Positions 8,851 to 53,215 of a stretch of DNA of 64,000 bases are shown piece after piece. The translations under genes and the position numbers were made by a program. The stretch comes from an uncultured Phycisphaerae bacterium (GTDB lineage Bacteria; Planctomycetota; Phycisphaerae; UBA1845; Fen-1342), in the NCBI GenBank assembly GCA_937928595.1, contig CALGJV010000027.1, positions 1 to 64,000 on the forward strand, written 5' to 3'. Below the pieces are notes generated by a model. The model was not told the origin of the DNA. It searched no databases and was given only the letters and a program-made list of their open reading frames with translations. How positions within the stretch are numbered: position 1 is the first letter of the stretch; every line of letters begins with the position of its first letter.

Positions 8851-9942
<1,092 letters not shown>

Positions 9943-42627: not shown

Positions 42628-42760
42628 GGCGTTGCGATGGGTCTCCGTGGACGGACGCACGCGGCGGGAGCCGCAACGCTTCCCGCCCGAAGTATCGACT
42701 GGTTTGCGCCGGCCGGTCAAATCTGGGGCAGCGGGCGTTGCGGGTCCGCGGCGGTGCGAC

Positions 42761-42766
42761 TAGGAT
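42761..42766 (+). promoter_or_regulatory. apt: -10 hexamer TAGGAT for apt
   Basis: TAGGAT in GCGACTAGGATGCCGCC, in the same context as the hexamer before the MFS gene. It is followed by a strong ribosome site AAGGGAG (42780-42786) and an in-frame ATG at 42792. Confidence 0.45.
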
Positions 42767-42902
42767 GCCGCCCGGCCGGAAGGGAGCAGTCATGGCGCCG
42801 GCCCGCGCGGCCGTGGGCGGCGCCGGTGTGCCTTTTTTTGCGCGAGTTTCGCCGGGCGGCTGGGCGCCGACCGGCGGACCGCAGCCGAGGCGCGGCGACG
42901 CT

Positions 42903-43460
42903 ATGAACTCCGGGCAGGTGTGGCGCGACGTTTCGGAAGCGGCGGACCTGCGACGACTCATTCGCGACGTGCCCGACTTTCCGAAGCCGGGGGTGCTCTT
43001 CAAGGACATCACGCCGCTGCTGCGCGACGCGTCCGGGCTCGCGCTGGCGGTCGAGCTGATGGTGCAGCCGTTTCGCGGCACGCATGTGGACGTGGTGGTG
43101 GGAGCGGAGTCGCGGGGCTTCATTTTTGGAACGGCCGCCGCGAAATCTCTCTCAGTGGGGTTCGTGCCGATCCGCAAACCGGGCAAGCTGCCGCGTTCCA
43201 CGCGGCGCGTGGAATACGCGCTGGAGTACGGCACGGACGCGCTCGAGATGCATGCCGATGCCCTTCAACCCGGCCAGAATGTGCTGATCGTGGATGACGT
43301 GCTGGCGACCGGCGGCACGCTGGCGGCGTGCTGCGGGCTCGTGCGGGCCGCCGGCGCGCGGATTCAGGCAGTCGCGGTGCTCATTGAGCTCCCGAAGCTC
43401 GGCGGCCGAGCGCTGCTCGGCGACGTGCCCGTGTTCAGCGTGATATCTTATCCGAAGTGA
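42903..43460 (+). CDS. apt: Adenine phosphoribosyltransferase
   Basis: Apt makes AMP from adenine and PRPP (purine salvage). With this start the protein has 185 residues, matching the E. coli enzyme. DVPDFPKPGVLFKDITPLLR is the N-terminal block, GAESRGFIFGTAAA the next, and VLIVDDVLATGGT the PRPP motif. An alternative start at 42792 has a much better ribosome site (AAGGGAG, 42780-42786) and would add 37 Ala/Gly/Pro-rich residues; codon use there is less typical (TTT TTT, GTT), so I kept 42903. Either is possible. Confidence 0.92.
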   Translation: MNSGQVWRDVSEAADLRRLIRDVPDFPKPGVLFKDITPLLRDASGLALAVELMVQPFRGTHVDVVVGAESRGFIFGTAAAKSLSVGFVPIRKPGKLPRSTRRVEYALEYGTDALEMHADALQPGQNVLIVDDVLATGGTLAACCGLVRAAGARIQAVAVLIELPKLGGRALLGDVPVFSVISYPK

Positions 43461-43721: not shown

Positions 43722-44261
43722 ATGACACTCAGACGCGGTGCGTGGCGGTGTGGCGTGGTCGCCGGGCTGGCGGCAGTGGCGATCGGCGGTTGCGCGCTCG
43801 CCACGGACCTGGTGAACCCGACGCTGGCGTCGTCCCTGGGGTTGCCGGGCAGCCAGTCGGGCGAGCGCGGCGTCGTCATCATGGCGTTCAACAACACGAC
43901 GAAGTTTCCGGCGGTGTTCCTGGCATTTGAGGCCGGGGATGCGACCGACGCGACGAGCGGCCGGAACTTCTCGGTGCAGGCGCAACCGGGCGAAGTCGCC
44001 AACGAGATCATCGAGTGCCCGGTGGCCGTGCTCGGTCCCGGGACGCTCGGGGCGGACCTGTCGGTGGATACCGCCGCCGCGGTCGTCGTCGCCGGGCAGA
44101 ATGTCGCGACCGTGGGCTACGCCGGGGGGCCGCTGCGCTCCGGCACGGCCTACAAGTGCGGCGACGTCATCGAGGTCCGCCTGGTCGCGACGGCGACCGG
44201 CACGGGGGACCAGCAGCAGCAGAATCTGCGGATCGTGGTGCGGGTGATCCCCGGGCAGTGA
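43722..44261 (+). CDS. Lipoprotein A of a paralogous set
   Basis: The protein has 179 residues with a lipobox AVAIGGC (Cys24). Just after it, TDLVNPTLASSLGL starts a motif shared with lipoproteins B and C (T-x-[IL]-[LIV]-N-P, the N 8-9 residues past the Cys). The body has VIMAFNNTTKFPAVFLAFEA and SGTAYKCGDVIEVRL, which match B. No catalytic motif. GGAGG (43712-43716) lies 5 nt before the ATG. It begins a set of four genes (43722-48515) that are very closely spaced, so an operon is likely. It may be a surface or outer-membrane protein of unknown role. Confidence 0.75.
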   Translation: MTLRRGAWRCGVVAGLAAVAIGGCALATDLVNPTLASSLGLPGSQSGERGVVIMAFNNTTKFPAVFLAFEAGDATDATSGRNFSVQAQPGEVANEIIECPVAVLGPGTLGADLSVDTAAAVVVAGQNVATVGYAGGPLRSGTAYKCGDVIEVRLVATATGTGDQQQQNLRIVVRVIPGQ

Positions 44262-44280
44262 ACGCCGTAAGGAGCAGAGC

Positions 44281-44817
44281 GTGATGGTGGGAGCACAGGC
44301 TTGGCGGTGGACGGTGCTGGCCGGACTCGTGCTGGCCGGGGGCTGCGCCGACCCGACGGAGATCCTGAATCCGGAGTTTGTGGACAGTCTGAGCCGCGGG
44401 AGCGGAAGCGTCGCATCGCTGCCGGGTGATGCCCCGGGGCTCGCCGTGTTTGTCGAGAACCAGACGACGCGCTGGATCAGCGCGGCCGTCTCGTATCGGG
44501 ATGGGGACGGGAACGCCCGCAGCTTCACGCAGGTGGTCGGGCCGGGTGAGCGGACGGGGCAGATGCTGGTCTGCCAGATCCAGGAGATCACGCTCGGGAA
44601 CGTGTCGGATCTGGGCGCGGTCGGCGCCGTCGTCTACCTGTCCGACCCGGCGACGGGCAGTCTGGCGGACTCGCCGTTCGTAGAAGTGGAGCCGTTCGGG
44701 CTGCTGCTCCGCAGCGGCGTGAACTACGAGTGCGGCGACGGGGTGGACTTCATCGTGCGGGCTTCGTCGAACACGGCTTCGGGTTACCAGACGTACGCGC
44801 GGCTGCGCAACAATTGA
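44281..44817 (+). CDS. Lipoprotein B of a paralogous set
   Basis: The protein has 178 residues (177 from the ATG three nt later). The lipobox is GLVLAGGC (Cys22), followed by TEILNPEFVDSLSRG, the motif shared with A and C. LAVFVENQTTRWISAAVSYR and SGVNYECGDGVDFIVRA match A. The last part (ASGYQTYARLRNN) is not conserved. GGAG (44271-44274) supports GTG 44281 (6 nt) or ATG 44284 (9 nt). The gap to A is 19 nt. Function unknown. Confidence 0.75.
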   Translation: MMVGAQAWRWTVLAGLVLAGGCADPTEILNPEFVDSLSRGSGSVASLPGDAPGLAVFVENQTTRWISAAVSYRDGDGNARSFTQVVGPGERTGQMLVCQIQEITLGNVSDLGAVGAVVYLSDPATGSLADSPFVEVEPFGLLLRSGVNYECGDGVDFIVRASSNTASGYQTYARLRNN

Positions 44818-44853
44818 GCGGCGGCCACGGCGCCGCGTCCGCGGGAGTGTCGG

Positions 44854-47661
44854 ATGAGAAACGCAGTACACAAGGCCGGAGCCTGGGCCGTCGGGGTGCT
44901 CGTCAGCCTGCTGGCGGGCGGGTGCCCGACGGGGCCGGGTGGTGGCGGCGACGTGATCGCCGGCGGCACGGGCGACACGGGGCAGATCCGCAACGAGGCG
45001 TCGGTGCGGGTGCTGACCCCGTCGGCGACGCTGTCGATCACCGGCGGCACACAGGTCGAGGTCAACTGGCAGGCCTTCGGCACGACGCGTTTCGCGGTGC
45101 TGGACGTCTTCTTCGACGTCGACCGGAACGCCGCCAACGGCAACGAGATCGTCGCGCTGGGCAACCGGCCGCTGACCGAGACCTCGGCCCTGCTCGACAC
45201 GACCCGCCTGCTGCGCGGCACGTACTTCATCGGCGTGCGGGTGAAGGAGGCCGGCGCGGTCGTGGCGTTCGGCTACGCGCCGGGGCAGGTCGTCATCGAC
45301 CAGCGGCCGTCGTTCCGCTTCACGACCGACGATGTGCGGGAATCGACCATCAGCGACCGGTCCAATCGCATCGTGTTGACGTTCAACGTGCAGTGGGAGT
45401 TCAGTGATCCGGACTCGACGAACACGGTGCGGGTGTATCTCGATCCCGACCGGGGCGAGGACGTGAACGCCAACGCGGCCCTGGGCGTCAACGGCAACGA
45501 AATCCTGCTGTACACGAGTGCCCGGGCCCCGGACGCGGACGGCGTGACGCGCGACGGGTTCACGTTCGACCTGCCGCCGGCGTCGTTTCCGCCGGGCCGC
45601 TACCGCATCCTGGCGATCGTGTCGGACGGCAACACGGCCATCCCGTTCTACGCGCCGGGCGTGGTTACGCTGCGGTCGCGGCTGGCGGGGTACGTGGATC
45701 TGCGGTTCATGGACTTGCCCAGCAGCCCGGTGCGCGGCGCGATCTTCGAGGGCTTCAACCCGCGCGACAATGCGGGCAGTCTCGTCGCCAGTGCCAAGGA
45801 CTTCGACGGCGATGGTTTCGGCGACTTCATGATCGTCTCGCAGTTCGGCAAGCCGCGCTACCAGGTGAACACCCAGGGCATCGGCCTGGGTGAAGCCTAC
45901 CTGATCTACGGTCGCCGGAAGGCGTTTACCGGGGTGAACAATCTGAACTCGACCGGCACGCTCTTCCGCGGCGAGATTTTCGGCGGCGTTCCGGAAGCGT
46001 CGGATCCGATCCGCCCGACGCGGGGCATCACGAGCTTCACCGTCGTGTCCGACATGAACGGCGACGGGGCCCAGGAGCTCGCGTTCGGTCTGCCGTTCGT
46101 CGATTCGGCGCCGCAGGGCATTCTGGATGCCGCCGGCTATTTCCGGACCGGCGGCGTCGTGGTCGTGTCCGGCTCCGTGTTCGGCGGTTTCTTCGGCCAG
46201 ACGTACATCCCGCTCGCGGAGGTGGGCACGCGGACCCCGTCGCCCGGACCGCCGGACCCGGTCTACTGTCCCGAGGGGTTCGTGGGCGTGAAGGCGCCGT
46301 CGTCGTCGCTCGGCTGGACGCTCTTCCATGAAAACTACGGCGTGGCGGTGCTCGAAACGCGGCTCGGCATGCGCATCTCGACGGCCGTTTTCGGCGACCA
46401 GTGCGGTGAGACGCTGTCCACCTACCCGTTCTTCGCCGGTGGGTCGAACACCGCCCTGGTGATCTCCGCCCCGGGGCGCGACCCGACGCGGACCGCGTTC
46501 GTGGGTAGCCGGCCCGGCGCCGGCACGGTCAGCATTTTCTACCACACGCCGGGGTACAACCTGTGGGACACCGAGACGGACGAGCTGCCGGTGGGCGGGC
46601 CGTTCCACTACATTCTCGACGACCGGACGTACCCGCCGTTCGCACTGGCCGGCTACTACACCACCACCCTGACGGATGACCCGTGCACGGAGCAGATCCA
46701 GTCGTCCAACACGCCCATCCGGTCGAACACGGCGCGGCTGTACGGCGAGTTCGCCGGCGCCGCCGCGGGGAACGCCGTGGGGGTCTCCGACTTCAACGCG
46801 GACGGCCTGCCCGACCTGCTGGTCGGCAGCCCGCTGGCGTTCGGCGGGCGCGGCGCGTGCTACATCGTGCTGGGCCGGATTCCGGCCCTCGTCACGGGCA
46901 CCGAGTTGGGACTGGAGGAGCTGAGCCTTCCGATGAATGCGGGCGGGGCGCAGCGCGTGTTTGACGGCATCCGGGTGGTCGGCGCCCCCGGCGACCGGCT
47001 GGGCGAATCGCAGGACGATGCCGGCGATTTCAACAATGACGGCATCGCCGACGTGATCATCGGCTCGCGGAACCTGAACGACCGCCGCGGGGGGGCGGCC
47101 GTGTTCTTCGGCTCGCGCACCGTGATCAACCTGACGGAGGACGAGATTCCGTTCAACGAGATCGCCAGCCGCGGGCTGGGCGTCATCTTCCGCGGCGAAA
47201 GCTCGGGAGACCTCGCCGGGGCGCGGGTGTCCAACGCGGGCGACGTCGACGGTGACGGCAACACGGATCTCCTGATCGCCGCGCCGGGCCGGACGGTCAC
47301 ACTCGATCTGGACCTGGATGGCGTGACCGAGATCGACCGCACCAACTGCGGCGTTGTGTATCTGGTCTACGGCTCGCCGCGCCTGGCGAGTATGGCGACT
47401 CCCGGCAACCCGCCGGGTGTCTTCGATTTGGCGTACTGCGGCACGGAGCACCTGCCGGGCGTGGTCTTCATCGGCCGCCGCAGCGGTGATCAGCTCGGCG
47501 CCGCGGTCGGCCTGCAAGGCGACCGCACCCGGGCCATCGCGCCGGCCGGCGACATCGACGGCGACGGCTTCGCCGACCTGCTGCTGGGCTCGGCGACGGC
47601 CTCGCCGCGGGATCGGACGGAGGCGGGCGAAGTGTACCTGATCTACGGGCTCGGAGATTGA
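44854..47661 (+). CDS. FG-GAP/integrin-alpha-like lipoprotein
   Basis: The protein has 935 residues. A lipobox (SLLAGGC, Cys24) leads to an N-terminal region with Ig-like strands (about 50-290), then FG-GAP-type repeats (about 300-935) with calcium loops such as DFDGDGFGDF, DMNGDGAQEL, DFNADGLPDLLVG, DFNNDGIADVIIG, DVDGDGNTDLLI and DIDGDGFADLLLG. FG-GAP proteins fold as a beta propeller and often mediate binding. It lies in the middle of the lipoprotein set, 36 nt after B and 41 nt before C. It is probably exposed on the surface and may be the main functional partner of the small lipoproteins. Ligand unknown. Confidence 0.85.
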   Translation: MRNAVHKAGAWAVGVLVSLLAGGCPTGPGGGGDVIAGGTGDTGQIRNEASVRVLTPSATLSITGGTQVEVNWQAFGTTRFAVLDVFFDVDRNAANGNEIVALGNRPLTETSALLDTTRLLRGTYFIGVRVKEAGAVVAFGYAPGQVVIDQRPSFRFTTDDVRESTISDRSNRIVLTFNVQWEFSDPDSTNTVRVYLDPDRGEDVNANAALGVNGNEILLYTSARAPDADGVTRDGFTFDLPPASFPPGRYRILAIVSDGNTAIPFYAPGVVTLRSRLAGYVDLRFMDLPSSPVRGAIFEGFNPRDNAGSLVASAKDFDGDGFGDFMIVSQFGKPRYQVNTQGIGLGEAYLIYGRRKAFTGVNNLNSTGTLFRGEIFGGVPEASDPIRPTRGITSFTVVSDMNGDGAQELAFGLPFVDSAPQGILDAAGYFRTGGVVVVSGSVFGGFFGQTYIPLAEVGTRTPSPGPPDPVYCPEGFVGVKAPSSSLGWTLFHENYGVAVLETRLGMRISTAVFGDQCGETLSTYPFFAGGSNTALVISAPGRDPTRTAFVGSRPGAGTVSIFYHTPGYNLWDTETDELPVGGPFHYILDDRTYPPFALAGYYTTTLTDDPCTEQIQSSNTPIRSNTARLYGEFAGAAAGNAVGVSDFNADGLPDLLVGSPLAFGGRGACYIVLGRIPALVTGTELGLEELSLPMNAGGAQRVFDGIRVVGAPGDRLGESQDDAGDFNNDGIADVIIGSRNLNDRRGGAAVFFGSRTVINLTEDEIPFNEIASRGLGVIFRGESSGDLAGARVSNAGDVDGDGNTDLLIAAPGRTVTLDLDLDGVTEIDRTNCGVVYLVYGSPRLASMATPGNPPGVFDLAYCGTEHLPGVVFIGRRSGDQLGAAVGLQGDRTRAIAPAGDIDGDGFADLLLGSATASPRDRTEAGEVYLIYGLGD

Positions 47662-47702
47662 CGACGGACCGGTCGCCCCGGTGCGACCGCAGGAGTGGAC
47701 GT

Positions 47703-48515
47703 GTGATGAACCGCGGGCTTCTCGGCGGGTGCGGGCTCGTGCTGGCGGTCCTTCTGGCCGCGTGCGGCACGCCCGCGACGGGCATCATCAATCCGTACCT
47801 CACGCTGGCCAACACGTTCGGCGTCACGCCGACGGGGACCGACAGCGACACCGACTCGGGCGGCAGCGGGACCCAGGCCGGCGGCGCGTTCCGGCGGAAT
47901 GTGCGCCTGCTGATGGAGAACCTGCACTCCTCGGCGCAGGTGGACACTTCGTGGATCGCCTGGGTCGAGGCGGGCAGCGTACGGACCACGGACCAGCAGG
48001 ACGATCTGCTGCGGGCCGGGTACACCCGTCTGACGAGGCCGGTGGCCATCGGCACGGTCTTCACGCTGCCGATCGGCACGTATGTGTACAACGGACCGGG
48101 GCTGGCCGGGGCCACGCCGGTGCGGCTGGGCATCCCCGGGGCGCGGGTCGGCTCGCCGACGTACGAGATCTCGCTCTTGACGCCCGACGCCCTGCTGGTG
48201 TTCTCGCAACCGCCGGTGTCATGCGACAGCGTGGCTTGGCGGCTGCTGGACGCCCGCGGCAACGTCTTGACCGGCCCGGTCTCCGGCCCCGGCGGTTTCA
48301 AGACCCTGGCGCAGATCGACGCCTACCAGTGCGACCCGCTTCGGCCGGGGCTGTTTCTGCGCGTCGGCGGCGGGCGCCCGGCGGACAATGAGTATGTCGA
48401 GGGCGACAGCATCCTGTTCACGTTCAGCGAAGGGTCCGACGCCGATGGCAACTTCGCGTTCGTGACGATCGGAGCCGATCTTACTTTCACGCCCACGACG
48501 GGCACGACGCCGTAA
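47703..48515 (+). CDS. Lipoprotein C of a paralogous set
   Basis: The protein has 269-270 residues. The lipobox is AVLLAAC (Cys20 from the ATG at 47706) followed by TGIINPYLTLANTFGV, the motif shared with A and B. NVRLLMENLHSSAQVDTSWI corresponds to the IMAFNN/FVENQT block of A and B. The C-terminal half is longer than in A and B and contains SFSEGSDADG-like acidic loops. AGGAG (47691-47695) supports GTG 47703 or ATG 47706. Last gene of the operon-like set. Role unknown. Confidence 0.75.
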   Translation: MMNRGLLGGCGLVLAVLLAACGTPATGIINPYLTLANTFGVTPTGTDSDTDSGGSGTQAGGAFRRNVRLLMENLHSSAQVDTSWIAWVEAGSVRTTDQQDDLLRAGYTRLTRPVAIGTVFTLPIGTYVYNGPGLAGATPVRLGIPGARVGSPTYEISLLTPDALLVFSQPPVSCDSVAWRLLDARGNVLTGPVSGPGGFKTLAQIDAYQCDPLRPGLFLRVGGGRPADNEYVEGDSILFTFSEGSDADGNFAFVTIGADLTFTPTTGTTP

Positions 48516-48518
48516 AAC

Positions 48519-48534
48519 GTTGCAAACTCGCAAC
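48519..48534 (+). other. Short inverted repeat after lipoprotein C
   Basis: GTTGC (48519-48523) and GCAAC (48530-48534) flank AAACTC, just after the stop of lipoprotein C and before the TATAAT of the next gene. It could be a weak terminator or an operator half-site pair. Confidence 0.3.
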
Positions 48535-48565
48535 AGGATCGGTCGGGTTCGGCCGGTGCGAGTGG

Positions 48566-48571
48566 TATAAT
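48566..48571 (+). promoter_or_regulatory. -10 hexamer TATAAT
   Basis: A perfect TATAAT in AGTGGTATAATCGAGC, 29 nt before the ATG at 48601. No -35 box was found at 16-18 nt spacing. Confidence 0.55.
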
Positions 48572-48600
48572 CGAGCGACGGAATGTGAGAGGTATGGACG

Positions 48601-50049
48601 ATGTGCAGGCGCTTGGCGATTTTGACCGGCGTGGCGGCCGTTCTGGGGGCGGCGCCGTGGGGGCTGGCGCAGGGTACCGCCGATACGCCGCCGGTGATCG
48701 ATGAGACCGGCGTGGCGTTCGGGATCTGGCGGCTCACCGCCACCGGCTGGGTTCCCGACCTGGCGGATCCGCCGGCGCCGTTTGACCCGAACACGGATAT
48801 CGCTAATGAGGGCGACCGGATCTTGATCCTCGTGCCGTTTTCAGACGTCGAGTTGGGGGAGGTTGACGAGAACGGCAACCGGACGAAGCCGCAGGAGTTC
48901 TATGCTCTCAAGCAGAGCACCTGGTTGCTGGACTTTCCCGATCCGCCGGAGCCGCCTCCGGTCGGCGGCGACACGAGCATCTATTTCCCCGCGCCCAATC
49001 TGGAAGTGGACCCCCCGCCCGCGACGACGGGCCGGTTTGTGTACATCTTCCGCATTCCTGAGTTCAACGGTCCCAGTCAGGCGCGCCTGCGCGATCCGGT
49101 GGGTCACCCGTACGATGTCGGTTGGTTAGTGCTGATCTGCCTTGCGAACGTGCGCGAACCCGAGCCGGGTTTTGCGAGCTGCATCCTGCTTCCTCTGGTT
49201 GCCAAGGAGAACTTCGTCCTGCGGCCTCCGAACCCGCCGACGTTCGCGGACGCTGGGCCGGACCAGACGGTGGCGCTGAACACGCTCGTGACGCTGGACG
49301 CCCGGGGGACCTTCGATGCGTGGAACATCGGCTTCGACTTGGCTGATCCGAACGTCTTTGAGAAGGACCGCCTCACGTTCATCTGGGAATGGGTTTCGGG
49401 TCCCGCGCGGGTGGAGCCCACGCAGTCGAGCATCTACTCCCCGCTGGCCACGGTGACGCTCACCGTCCGCGGGGACTACGTCTATCGCGTGATCGCGACG
49501 GACGGTTTCACCGTGCCGCCGAGCGTGGACACGGTCAACATCTTCGCGCGGAACGCCAGCGAACTGCCCTCGGCCAACCGTCGGCCGGTCGCGAGCGCGA
49601 TCGGGCCGGCCGCGAACGTGACGGTGGGGCAGGTCATCACACTCGATGGGCGCGGTTCGTCCGACCCGGACGGCGACACGCTGAACTACCGCTGGAAACA
49701 GACCAACGAAGTCGGCGGCGAGCTGACGTTCGACGAAGTGGCCGCGGCGTTCCAGCCGATGAGCGGCCTGCGGGAGGCGGTGAGCACGTGGCGGGCGGTC
49801 GCTCCCGGCACGTACAACTTCCTGCTGGTTGTGACGGACCCGTACGGCCAGGCCGACTCGACTCCCGTCACGGTGACGGTCGTGTCCGGCACGGCCGGGC
49901 AGACGGTCAACCGCGGAACCACGGCGGGCGCGGACGGCGGCGCGGTCACGGTGCCGGCGCCCGTCGCGCCGCTGGGCTGTGGCGCGGGACTGGCGCCGCT
50001 GCTGGTGGTGCCGCTGGTGCTGCGGATGATGCGCGGACGAATGCGCTGA
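48601..50049 (+). CDS. Secreted PKD/cadherin-like repeat protein with cysteine-containing C-terminal sorting signal
   Basis: The protein has 482 residues. A signal peptide (1-24, GLAQG) is followed by a unique N-terminal region (about 30-205) and two Ig-like/PKD-type domains (about 213-315 and 328-430; PTFADAGPDQTVALNTLVTL, TLDGRGSSDPDGDTLNYRW). The end, APLGCGAGLAPLLVVPLVLR with MMRGRMR, has a Cys-Gly motif, a hydrophobic helix and a basic tail: a three-part anchoring signal of the kind used for surface sorting, but not PEP-CTERM. GAGAGGT precedes the ATG. It follows the lipoprotein set but has its own TATAAT. Confidence 0.82.
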   Translation: MCRRLAILTGVAAVLGAAPWGLAQGTADTPPVIDETGVAFGIWRLTATGWVPDLADPPAPFDPNTDIANEGDRILILVPFSDVELGEVDENGNRTKPQEFYALKQSTWLLDFPDPPEPPPVGGDTSIYFPAPNLEVDPPPATTGRFVYIFRIPEFNGPSQARLRDPVGHPYDVGWLVLICLANVREPEPGFASCILLPLVAKENFVLRPPNPPTFADAGPDQTVALNTLVTLDARGTFDAWNIGFDLADPNVFEKDRLTFIWEWVSGPARVEPTQSSIYSPLATVTLTVRGDYVYRVIATDGFTVPPSVDTVNIFARNASELPSANRRPVASAIGPAANVTVGQVITLDGRGSSDPDGDTLNYRWKQTNEVGGELTFDEVAAAFQPMSGLREAVSTWRAVAPGTYNFLLVVTDPYGQADSTPVTVTVVSGTAGQTVNRGTTAGADGGAVTVPAPVAPLGCGAGLAPLLVVPLVLRMMRGRMR

Positions 50050-50241: not shown

Positions 50242-51261
50242 CTACGCGTCGTCGGCTGCGTCGGGGACGGGATGAGATCGGGCGCCGGCCTCATCCGCCG
50301 CGGCGAGCTCCTCTTTCGGGCGGTGTTTCCAGCGCCGGTGGACCCACAGGTACTGCTCGGGGTGCCGACGGATCAGCCGCTCCATCGCGGCGGAGAACTC
50401 CTGCGTCACCCAGAGCAGCGGATCGTCGCGGCCCTCCCACTCCGGCGGGTGGATGACGCGCTCCACGTCCATGTGATACCGAAACCGCCGCCCGACGCGG
50501 TGCGCGGCCCCCACCACGATCGGCACGCGCTTGTGCATCGCCAGCAACCCGATCGACTTGTACGTCGACGCCTTGCGGCCGAAGAACTCGACGAACACGC
50601 CCTTGCGCCCGGCGTCCTGGTCGGCGATGAAGCTCAGTGCGCCCCCGCGGTCGAGAATTTCGCCGGCGACGGCGGAGACGCCCTTCTTGAACAGCAGTTC
50701 CATGCCGCCGCGCTCGCGGGACGCGACGAGGAACCGGTTGACCAGCGGGTTGTCGAGCGGGCGCATCACGGCTGTGATCGGCAGCCCTAGCCGGCAGAGC
50801 GTCAGGCCCAGCAGCTCGTAGTTGCCGAAGTGGGGCGTCAGCAGGATGCAGCCGCGCCCGGCGAGCAGCGCCCGCAGCGCTGAATCCAGCCGCCCGAGCT
50901 CGACATGCCTGGCCCAGGCCCAGGTGCTGATGAGGCGCGGCGTCAGCGCCACTTCGACCGTGTAGAGCTGCGCGAAGTGCTCGAACGAGCGCCGCGCGAT
51001 CGCGCGCAGCTGCGCTTCCGTGTAATCACGCCCCAGCGCCGGCCGCAGGTTCTCGAGCGCCCGCTCGCGGTGCCGGGGGCTGGCCCACCACCAGATGCGG
51101 CCGAGCAGCCGGCCGGTGTGCAGGTTCCACTCGATCGGGAAGCAGCCGATGATCGCGATCCACGCGCGCAGCGCGGCGTACTCGCCGACGCGGCGCAGGG
51201 CCGTGCGGAGGTCGGGCGCCTCGGTCGCACGCAGCAGTCTGTCGATCCAGTCGCGCAGCAT
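50242..51261 (-). CDS. LpxL/HtrB-family acyltransferase
   Basis: The protein has 339 residues. It belongs to the lysophospholipid/lauroyl acyltransferase family that adds an acyl chain to lipid A in the inner membrane. LTPHFGNYELLG has the H-x4-E catalytic pair. MRPLDNP, FIADQDAG, VFVEFFGRKAS and YLWVHRRWKHRPK are further family blocks. A hydrophobic N-terminal stretch (about 30-40) may anchor it. The gene starts 7 nt after the stop of the PMT-like gene on the same strand, so the two are co-transcribed. It supports a lipid-A-type outer membrane, though substrate is inferred. Confidence 0.92.
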   Translation of the reverse strand: MLRDWIDRLLRATEAPDLRTALRRVGEYAALRAWIAIIGCFPIEWNLHTGRLLGRIWWWASPRHRERALENLRPALGRDYTEAQLRAIARRSFEHFAQLYTVEVALTPRLISTWAWARHVELGRLDSALRALLAGRGCILLTPHFGNYELLGLTLCRLGLPITAVMRPLDNPLVNRFLVASRERGGMELLFKKGVSAVAGEILDRGGALSFIADQDAGRKGVFVEFFGRKASTYKSIGLLAMHKRVPIVVGAAHRVGRRFRYHMDVERVIHPPEWEGRDDPLLWVTQEFSAAMERLIRRHPEQYLWVHRRWKHRPKEELAAADEAGARSHPVPDAADDA

Positions 51262-51268
51262 GTCGACG

Positions 51269-53215
51269 TCAGTCCGTCGGTGCCGACGCGCTGGCCGGCG
51301 CCCGCGCCGCCAGGATCCGCTCGGCCTCCTGCTCGGCCGCGGCGAGCCGCGCGCGCAGCTTGTCGGTCAGGCGCAGCTCCGGCTCCGGGAACGGCGGCGC
51401 GACGTTGCCGAATACCACGAAATGCTGGCCGAAGTCACCATAACGCGACTGGAGCCAGTGCCGGATCGGCGGCAGCCGGCGCCCCTCGGCCGCCAGCGCC
51501 GGCGGGGCCTGGATCCGCAGCTCCATGTACTCTTCGAAGCGCGCGACGAACAGCGCCGGCGCCGGCCGCGCGAGGGCGGCGATGATCTCCTCGGCCGTGC
51601 GGCGTTTCTCGTAGTCGAGGCTGCGCGGGCCCCGCTGCTCGCGCAGCAGTTGCAGCGGGTCGATGACGCGCGGGAAGCGCACGTCGCTGTACCAGACGAT
51701 GCGCGAGTCCTGGAACCCCACGCTGCGCAGGGCCGCCCGGTACTCCGGCGGGATCTCGTCGCGCAGTTGCCGGGCGAAGTCGATGTACGCCCGCTGCGAC
51801 TCGATCAGCGGCAGCAGCCGCGGCCAGGCCCACAGCCACACGCCCCACATCGTGATCACCAGCAGCGCGAACGAGGCCGCCGCGCGGCGGCGCTGGTACA
51901 GCGTGGCCGCCAGTCCGAACCCGACCGTCAGGATGGCCCCGGTGACCGCGAAGGCGATCGCCACATCGCGACCGGTCGCCAGGCCCTCGAGCTCGAGCGT
52001 GCCGCTGAGCTGGTACCAGCGGCGCAGGCCGACCAGCCCCGCGACGGCGAGGCCGAGCGGCACCCCGAGCCAGACGGCCCACAAAGCGGCCCGTTCCAGC
52101 TTCGGGTTCGGACGCCGCTGCGGGTCGAACAGGCGCGCCAGCTCGATGCCCAGCAGCACCAGCAGCGGCGGCACGGCCGGCAGCAGGTACCGCCATTCCT
52201 TGCCCGCCGACACCGTGAAGAAGGCGAAGTGCCCGAGGAACCACAGCGCGAGGAAGAGCGTGCCGCGGCGGTTGACGCCCTCCGGCGGCCGCAGCGCCCG
52301 CAGCAGCGCGGCCGGCACGGACAGCGTGAACGGCAGGGTGTAGAGTGCGGCCGCACCGAAGTAAGTGAACCACCACGGCAGCGCGCGCTGGCCGGCGACG
52401 CTGGGCAGGTCGCCGGTGAAGCGGTCCAGGAACTCGACGCGCCAGCGGAGCAGGGCGGCGGGATCGGAATGGATGACCGCGACGGCCCAGGGCAGCCACG
52501 GCAGCAGGAACAGAGCCAGGCCCACGAGGTGCCAGCCGCTGGCGAGAAGCGTCCAGCGTCGCAGGACGACGACGTATAGCACGGCCGGAAGGCCCACGAG
52601 CACGAGCGGCATCGGCATCTTGTAGAGCATGCCGAGGCCCGCGGTGAAGTAACCGGTCAGCCATAGCGCGACCCGCATCCGGCGGCCGCGGACGGCCTCG
52701 GAGCCGATCCACAGCGCGGCCAGCGATGCGGTTGTGCAGGTGGTCAGTCCGAGGTCGCTGGCGGCGCGGTGCGACCACCACAGGACGAGCACGCTGGCCG
52801 ACGCGGCGAACCCGGCGAACCGGGCGGCCCGCTCCCCGGCGATGCGATGCGCGAGCCAGAAGATCGTCAGGACCAGCAGCACCGCCGCGATGGCGCTGGG
52901 CAGTCGGGCGGACACGGTGTCCACCGGCGTGCCGCGGGCCAGACTGGTGAGCATCACCGCCCAGTACGGGCCGGGCGACTTCTGCATTCGCGTTTCGCCG
53001 GCGAACCGCGGCACGAGCCAGTCACCCGCGGCCTGCATCTCGCGGGCCGTCTGCGCCACCCAGCAGTCGATGGGCTCGAAACCCGGCCCGCCGTCGAGGT
53101 CGTAGAGCGCCAGGGCGAGCGTGGCGCCGGCCAGCAGCGCGAACCAGCACCACGTCGTGCCCGTCCAGGCATCCGGCCCGACGGCCGGGAGAGCGGGCGC
53201 CGGAGCCTCGCTCAC
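51269..53215 (-). CDS. ArnT/PMT-family membrane glycosyltransferase
   Basis: The protein has 648 residues with about a dozen hydrophobic spans (for example about 27-40, 108-124, 200-222, 228-250). The N-terminal loop after span 1 has the Asp/Glu-rich GPGFEPIDCWVAQ and RFAGETRMQKSPGPYW, resembling the family-39/83 (PMT, ArnT) acidic motif region. These enzymes transfer a sugar from a polyprenyl-phosphate donor, often to lipid A or proteins. The C-terminal region (about 480-640) is soluble. The start is GTG; its GTGA overlaps the stop of the YlbF-like gene upstream. Donor and acceptor are unknown; its link to an LpxL-like gene hints at lipid A. Confidence 0.85.
   Translation of the reverse strand: MSEAPAPALPAVGPDAWTGTTWCWFALLAGATLALALYDLDGGPGFEPIDCWVAQTAREMQAAGDWLVPRFAGETRMQKSPGPYWAVMLTSLARGTPVDTVSARLPSAIAAVLLVLTIFWLAHRIAGERAARFAGFAASASVLVLWWSHRAASDLGLTTCTTASLAALWIGSEAVRGRRMRVALWLTGYFTAGLGMLYKMPMPLVLVGLPAVLYVVVLRRWTLLASGWHLVGLALFLLPWLPWAVAVIHSDPAALLRWRVEFLDRFTGDLPSVAGQRALPWWFTYFGAAALYTLPFTLSVPAALLRALRPPEGVNRRGTLFLALWFLGHFAFFTVSAGKEWRYLLPAVPPLLVLLGIELARLFDPQRRPNPKLERAALWAVWLGVPLGLAVAGLVGLRRWYQLSGTLELEGLATGRDVAIAFAVTGAILTVGFGLAATLYQRRRAAASFALLVITMWGVWLWAWPRLLPLIESQRAYIDFARQLRDEIPPEYRAALRSVGFQDSRIVWYSDVRFPRVIDPLQLLREQRGPRSLDYEKRRTAEEIIAALARPAPALFVARFEEYMELRIQAPPALAAEGRRLPPIRHWLQSRYGDFGQHFVVFGNVAPPFPEPELRLTDKLRARLAAAEQEAERILAARAPASASAPTD

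What the first reader, a model, noticed from the sequence alone, without database searches (positions are those of the whole stretch)
43722..50049. Surface cluster of three paralogous lipoproteins around an FG-GAP lipoprotein
Lipoproteins A, B and C all have T-x-[IL]-[LIV]-N-P 8-9 residues after the acylated Cys, plus a shared later block, and they flank an FG-GAP-type lipoprotein in a tight operon. A secreted PKD-like protein with its own promoter follows. It suggests a dedicated surface complex, perhaps assembled through the shared N-terminal motif.
Basis: partly seen in the sequence, partly recalled or inferred. Interest (0 to 1): 0.7.

Follow-up and report, generated by a model that had tools for sequence, protein, structure and literature searches.

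The report
Conserved lipoprotein cluster; selenoprotein in relatives
A block of five cell-surface protein genes is kept in the same order throughout one family of Phycisphaerales bacteria, and in two related genera its largest protein, an integrin-like propeller, appears to carry the rare amino acid selenocysteine, which has not been reported for this protein type in the papers searched.

Summary
Five co-directional genes (A, B, FG-GAP, C, PKD; 43722-50049) occur in the same order in all 21 complete loci of one Phycisphaerales family; family C occurs nowhere else in the order (0 of 87 genomes). A and B are paralogues. C is not demonstrably related to them by sequence, only similar in predicted fold class. 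The motif T-x-[IL]-[LIV]-N-P is a coincidence of this genome (2/20, 2/19, 1/24 orthologues). A separate PKD promoter has no support. The likeliest role is an envelope complex built round the FG-GAP propeller (inferred). Unexpectedly, the FG-GAP lipoprotein of two sister genera has an in-frame TGA in one blade loop, followed by 404 equally constrained codons, frozen third-codon positions and a SECIS hairpin with the spacing, loop and covarying stem of the formate dehydrogenase SECIS elements of the same genomes. Both genomes encode SelA and SelB; tRNA-Sec was found in one and in a congener of the other. No other TGA in the family loci combines such a hairpin with open frames. The window's own copy lacks it. 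I read this as an undescribed selenoprotein family, untested biochemically.

The parts
43722..44261 (+). Lipoprotein A (179 aa): lipobox GGC, mature transthyretin/TssJ-like beta-sandwich with conserved C99 and YxCGD
   Evidence: orthologues throughout the family loci
44281..44817 (+). Lipoprotein B (177-178 aa; GTG 44281 or ATG 44284 start), paralogue of A
44854..47661 (+). FG-GAP (integrin-alpha-type beta-propeller) lipoprotein, 935 aa; DxDGDG-type loops at residues 400, 725, 797, 900
46423..46455 (+). Blade loop (residues 524-534, YPFFAGGSNTA) that in the orthologues of G014 and G007 is longer and holds the in-frame TGA; no TGA or SECIS here in the window
47706..48515 (+). Lipoprotein C (269 aa), a separate family found only in this taxonomic family; no Pfam match
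48601..50049 (+). Secreted PKD protein (482 aa) with signal peptide and C-terminal CG-hydrophobic-RRR tail
42756..43460 (+). Conserved upstream neighbour: phosphoribosyltransferase (apt-like), ahead of the block in every family locus that reaches that far

Best explanation
A vertically inherited five-gene cell-envelope module of one Phycisphaerales family. SHOWN by sequence: invariant order, export signals, family-wide conservation, A/B paralogy, integrin-type propeller. INFERRED: the FG-GAP lipoprotein is the membrane-tethered scaffold, a propeller with partly Ca2+-stabilised blades; the small lipid-anchored beta-sandwich proteins A, B and C dock on it (as the beta-sandwich lipoprotein TssJ holds its partner); the PKD protein, anchored by its C-terminal tail, joins it at the cell surface or in the periplasm for adhesion or envelope scaffolding. 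In the common ancestor of two genera (G014, G007) the propeller acquired an extended blade loop with a UGA read as selenocysteine through a bacterial SECIS just downstream. This step is strongly supported by comparative evidence but not by biochemistry. Sec lies where the Ca2+ loop of an ordinary FG-GAP blade would be and probably serves a redox or soft-metal-binding role; that last step is a guess. Separate confidences: Sec in G014/G007 about 0.85; a physical complex about 0.55.
For: Same order and strand in 21 complete loci plus 3 cut by contig ends. C in 24 of 27 family genomes and 0 of 87 other genomes of the order. A/B homology. FG-GAP and integrin-alpha matches. A and C models hit the same beta-sandwich neighbours: A Z 9.4 to pneumolysin domain 4, 7.7 to SciN/TssJ; C Z 6.4 to PUD-1, 5.8 to TssJ1. 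For Sec: TGA in the same alignment column in two genera; amino-acid identity 68% before and 72% after it over 404 codons, substitutions 94/63/207 by codon position; clade support 100/100 with branch lengths 0.24 and 0.45; hairpin with loop GGTTC starting 19 nt after TGA, same geometry as the FdhA SECIS of G014, G007, G005, G006 and G018, all 28 cells paired, 3 of 4 pairs with double changes, covariation 0.74 against 0.27 in shuffles; G014 and G007 hairpins at -8.8 and -8.4 kcal/mol; third-codon identity 9/10 in the ten codons after TGA although only 5/10 residues are conserved (15 of 898 windows reach 9); no other TGA in the family loci has the fixed-spacing hairpin plus open frames; SelB, tRNA-Sec, SelA and Sec-FdhA.
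Against: No interaction data; co-conservation of an operon does not prove a complex. Z values below 10 and Foldseek E above 0.001 do not fix the fold assignments. For Sec: only two sequences; over 38 nt the free MFE of the G007 element prefers another fold (-19.1 against -12.4 kcal/mol constrained), and 48-nt z-scores are weak (-0.8, -1.5). No Cys at exactly the Sec column in orthologues, unlike most selenoproteins. G007's own tRNA-Sec was not found (MAG 89% complete), though its congener G024 has it. The window's own protein lacks Sec.
Confidence: 0.6

Rival explanations
1. The TGA in G014 and G007 is a real stop: the gene was split in an ancestor into two ORFs, the second translated by re-initiation.
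For: Two open frames of 515-526 and 403-405 codons; an in-frame ATG 12 codons after the TGA in G007.
Against: The second half would have no signal peptide, although it is part of an exported propeller; no ATG in the first 40 codons in G014; the frame is kept exactly, with equal constraint before and after; a SECIS-like hairpin and frozen third positions follow the TGA; the genomes decode Sec.
Confidence: 0.08
2. The cluster is a loose collection of envelope proteins kept together by genomic inertia at a conserved chromosomal place, without a joint complex.
For: Neighbours outside the block are conserved too (apt-like gene upstream in every locus with enough flank; acyltransferase and glycosyltransferase downstream in 12-13), so position alone says little.
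Against: Five genes never separated in 21 loci of different genera whose FG-GAP proteins are only about 51-61% identical to the window's, while the downstream neighbours vary; short gaps suggest one transcript.
Confidence: 0.3
3. A, B and C are three true paralogues from one ancestor, C having diverged beyond sequence recognition by insertions.
For: A and C models share their top PDB neighbours over one beta-sandwich; B-C profile alignment of the last hairpin, P 0.018; combined profile P 0.0023; similar post-Cys N-P core.
Against: No significant sequence relation; the fold class is common and the C match is weak (Z about 6); signal peptides inflate the combined P.
Confidence: 0.35

Closest known systems
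Bacterial integrin-type (FG-GAP) beta-propeller proteins (PMC3192720)
   Same: PF01839 repeats with DxDGDG Ca2+ loops; integrin alpha-V and alpha-IIb are the best solved relatives.
   Different: N-terminal lipid anchor, N-terminal region of about 250 residues, fixed five-gene cluster; one blade has a degenerate Ca2+ loop that in two genera holds a TGA.
Bacterial selenoproteins with bSECIS (model as given in PMC13188914)
   Same: [quoted passage not shown] host genomes with the decoding genes.
   Different: The review text has no occurrence of FG-GAP, propeller, lipoprotein or Planctomycet-; no Cys homologue at the Sec column.
TssJ/SciN, the beta-sandwich lipoprotein of the type VI secretion membrane complex
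   Same: Small lipid-anchored beta-sandwich; A model Z 7.7 (3rx9) and 7.2 (3zhn), C model Z 5.8 (3zhn).
   Different: No sequence relation was detected and no type VI gene lies next to the block; CDC domain 4 scores as high, so only a fold class is indicated.
MYXO-CTERM-like C-terminal sorting tails (from own knowledge)
   Same: PKD orthologues end in C-G, a hydrophobic stretch and a run of Arg.
   Different: Not matched to a curated model here; processing unknown.

Membership tests
Selenoprotein (bSECIS class) | In-frame UGA conserved between species, with coding continued after it | tested here: met
   G014 and G007, same column, 404 codons under equal constraint; not in the window's own protein
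[quoted passage not shown]
   Spacing 18-19 nt, loop GGUUC or GUU, 4-6 bp, -8.8 and -8.4 kcal/mol for nt 10-36; an alternative fold competes in G007
Selenoprotein (bSECIS class) | Host has SelA, SelB, tRNA-Sec(UCA) | tested here: met
   SelB above cut-off in 26/27 family genomes; tRNA-Sec in G014, G024, G000 and others; SelA in G000, G007, G014. tRNA-Sec of G007 itself not found
Selenoprotein (bSECIS class) | Cys-containing homologue at the Sec position (usual, not obligatory) | tested here: not met
   No orthologue has Cys in that column; G001 has two Cys within the loop
Selenoprotein (bSECIS class) | Sec demonstrated in the protein | not testable with these tools
   Needs mass spectrometry or 75Se labelling
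Integrin-type FG-GAP beta-propeller | FG-GAP/Cage repeats (PF01839) with DxDxDG Ca2+ loops | tested here: met
   E 7e-27, five stretches; four DxDGDG-type loops
Integrin-type FG-GAP beta-propeller | Seven blades in one domain | tested here: inconclusive
A/B lipoprotein family | C is a third paralogue | tested here: inconclusive
   No sequence relation, similar fold class
TssJ-like lipoprotein | Transthyretin-like beta-sandwich on a lipid anchor | tested here: inconclusive
   Z 7-8 for A, 5-6 for C, tied with other families
TssJ-like lipoprotein | Part of a type VI secretion locus (TssM, TssL) | tested here: not met
   Neighbours looked at are an apt-like gene, a lipid A acyltransferase and a glycosyltransferase

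The most novel reading that the evidence does not exclude
An exported, lipid-anchored integrin-type propeller in Phycisphaerales is a new selenoprotein family: Sec evolved without a Cys precursor in a blade loop that usually binds Ca2+, within a family-specific surface complex, and gives that complex a redox or soft-metal function.
Probability: 0.5. Interest if true: 0.75.

Novelty: new variant of a known kind. Interest (0 to 1): 0.55.

Why it matters
Most known selenoproteins are redox enzymes whose Sec stands where relatives have a catalytic Cys. A selenocysteine in a structural, integrin-like surface propeller, gained once in a clade inside a loop without a Cys counterpart, would widen what Sec is used for and how it arises. 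The cluster also gives a testable module (five gene families, three without any Pfam entry) for the envelope of a poorly studied Planctomycetota lineage.

Tried and rejected
T-x-[IL]-[LIV]-N-P as an assembly signal: rejected, not conserved. C as sequence paralogue: not supported. Another FG-GAP hit with an in-frame TGA in G057: looks like a frameshifted paralogue, not a Sec site. Stops reported inside C hits of several genomes: profile matches over the frames show no internal stop except one at the very end in G012, so they are normal gene ends. Wider search for more TGA-bearing homologues in 397 genomes of the class: only G007 (the query came from G014). Functional match for A or C in PDB: Foldseek gave no E below 0.001; families not listed are not excluded. 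Papers that join FG-GAP and selenoprotein: two, both unrelated; Phycisphaerae and selenocysteine: two, unrelated by title. A SECIS-like site in the window at 9311: the frame looks spurious, not followed.

Full report
WHAT IS THERE. The window lies in contig C27 of a 3.7-Mb Phycisphaerales genome (the nearest named relatives are Phycisphaerales/Phycisphaerae MAGs). Five co-directional genes fill 43722-50049: A, B, an FG-GAP protein, C and a PKD protein. A, B, FG-GAP and C have a lipobox and Cys. The gaps are 19, 36, 44 and 85 nt, which favours one transcript; a sigma-70 scan found no site anywhere in the block, so the separate PKD promoter has no support, although the scan says little for this lineage.

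THE THREE 'PARALOGUES'. A and B are paralogues (BLASTP 2e-16; profile-profile E 9e-18). C has no BLASTP relation to either and no convincing profile relation (P 0.35 and 0.018; P 0.0023 with signal peptides included, probability 12%). The motif T-x-[IL]-[LIV]-N-P holds for the three window proteins but for only 2/20 A, 2/19 B and 1/24 C orthologues. What recurs is a loose N-P core near residue 9 after the Cys; the consensus is roughly D-[LIV]-x-N-P in A and B and ERNPFLTLTE in C. AlphaFold models of A (pLDDT 87) and C (pLDDT 83, above 90 over the core) are beta-sandwiches that hit the same PDB chains: cholesterol-dependent cytolysin domain 4, the HGSNAT luminal domain, PUD-1 and the type VI lipoprotein TssJ/SciN. 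Z is up to 9.4 for A and 6.4 for C. A remote common origin is possible, not shown. No Pfam family matches A, B or C convincingly.

CONSERVATION. In the window's taxonomic family (27 genomes, 24 genera) the order A-B-FGGAP-C-PKD is the same in 21 complete loci and consistent in three cut by contig ends. Outside it, C is absent from all 87 further genomes of the order; FG-GAP matches there are weaker paralogues of about 1300 aa. An apt-like phosphoribosyltransferase gene precedes the block in every locus that reaches that far; a lipid A acyltransferase and a PMT-type glycosyltransferase follow on the other strand in 12-13.

THE UNEXPECTED PART. FG-GAP orthologues of two genera, G014 (L163) and G007 (L165), are each interrupted by one TGA in the same alignment column. 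The two sequences are sisters (support 100/100, branches 0.24 and 0.45), so one gain suffices. Downstream of the TGA 404 aligned codons keep frame, 72% amino-acid identity (68% upstream) and a coding substitution pattern (94, 63 and 207 changes at codon positions 1, 2 and 3). The sequence around it is YPFYAGFT-TGA-ALADPSGSLDC in G014 and YPFYGGYT-TGA-GLAAEGGSPDM in G007. The window protein has YPFFAGGSNTA there and no TGA.

SECIS. In both genes the TGA is followed by 18 nt, then GGTTC flanked by a four-base stem. The formate dehydrogenase genes of G014, G007, G005, G006 and G018 have an in-frame TGA at their Sec site with the loop [AG]GTYT at exactly the same distance. On the seven aligned elements all 28 pair cells are standard pairs, three of four pairs have changes on both sides, the covariation score is 0.74 against 0.27 in shuffles, and every slid control is far lower; note that the stem was chosen on these sequences. 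Within the FG-GAP pair alone one stem pair changes from A-U to G-C. Nucleotides 10-36 fold into the same hairpin in both gene families (-8.8 and -8.4 kcal/mol for FG-GAP), within the bSECIS model summarised in PMC13188914. Over longer stretches other folds compete, strongly so in G007. In the ten codons after the TGA third positions are identical in 9/10 although only 5/10 residues are; 15 of 898 windows reach 9, and the mean is 4.7. Among 12,987 TGA triplets in the loci scanned eight have this fixed-spacing loop and stem, and only these two also have open frames on both sides.

MACHINERY. SelB scores above its cut-off in 26 of 27 family genomes. tRNA-Sec with anticodon TCA is in G000, G014, G024 (a congener of G007) and others. 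SelA is in G000, G007 and G014. Both TGA-bearing genomes also carry a Sec-type FdhA.

INTERPRETATION. FG-GAP blades carry a DxDxDG Ca2+ loop between strands 1 and 2 (PMC3192720). The blade FGDQCGETVS...LVISVPGRDP keeps the FG and AP landmarks but not the Ca2+ loop, and the TGA lies where that loop would be; this placement is read from the sequence, not from a model. In G001 the same loop has two Cys. A redox or soft-metal role is a guess. For the whole cluster the best reading is an envelope complex with the propeller as scaffold and small beta-sandwich lipoproteins as partners; this is inference from invariant co-occurrence.

NOVELTY. A full-text search for FG-GAP with selenoprotein gave only two unrelated papers, and the 2026 review of prokaryotic selenoproteomes has no occurrence of FG-GAP, propeller, lipoprotein or Planctomycet-. 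Selenoproteins are known in other Planctomycetes (PMC4807772). These sources do not cover all literature. The cluster itself is a lineage-specific assembly of known folds; the TGA-bearing orthologues look like a new selenoprotein family. Interest is held at 0.55 because the Sec form is in relatives, rests on two sequences and is untested biochemically.

Noticed in passing
L163 10213-7424 (- strand), TGA at 8635-8633; L165 887-3649, TGA at 2432: In-frame TGA with SECIS-like hairpin in the FG-GAP lipoprotein of two sister genera; candidate new selenoprotein family.
   Followed up: yes
window 48601-50049, C-terminus, and orthologues: PKD proteins end in C-G, a hydrophobic stretch and an Arg run, like MYXO-CTERM sorting tails; the processing protease was not looked for.
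   Followed up: partly
window 42756-43460 and 50242-53215: The block sits at a fixed chromosomal place: apt-like gene upstream in all family loci with enough flank, lipid A acyltransferase and PMT-type glycosyltransferase downstream on the other strand in 12-13.
   Followed up: partly
G000 C6, C14, C17 (window's own genome): Sec-decoding genes are present (SelA, SelB, tRNA-Sec), but its FdhA hits showed no in-frame TGA, so its own selenoproteins remain unidentified.
   Followed up: no
G294 contig C464 (another family of the class): An FG-GAP homologue 52% identical to the family's, on a MAG with 9% contamination: transfer or contaminant.
   Followed up: no
L170 (G001), FG-GAP loop AYRCTTFGASCGLII: Two Cys in the loop that holds the TGA in G014/G007, hinting at a thiol/selenol role for this loop.
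   Followed up: no
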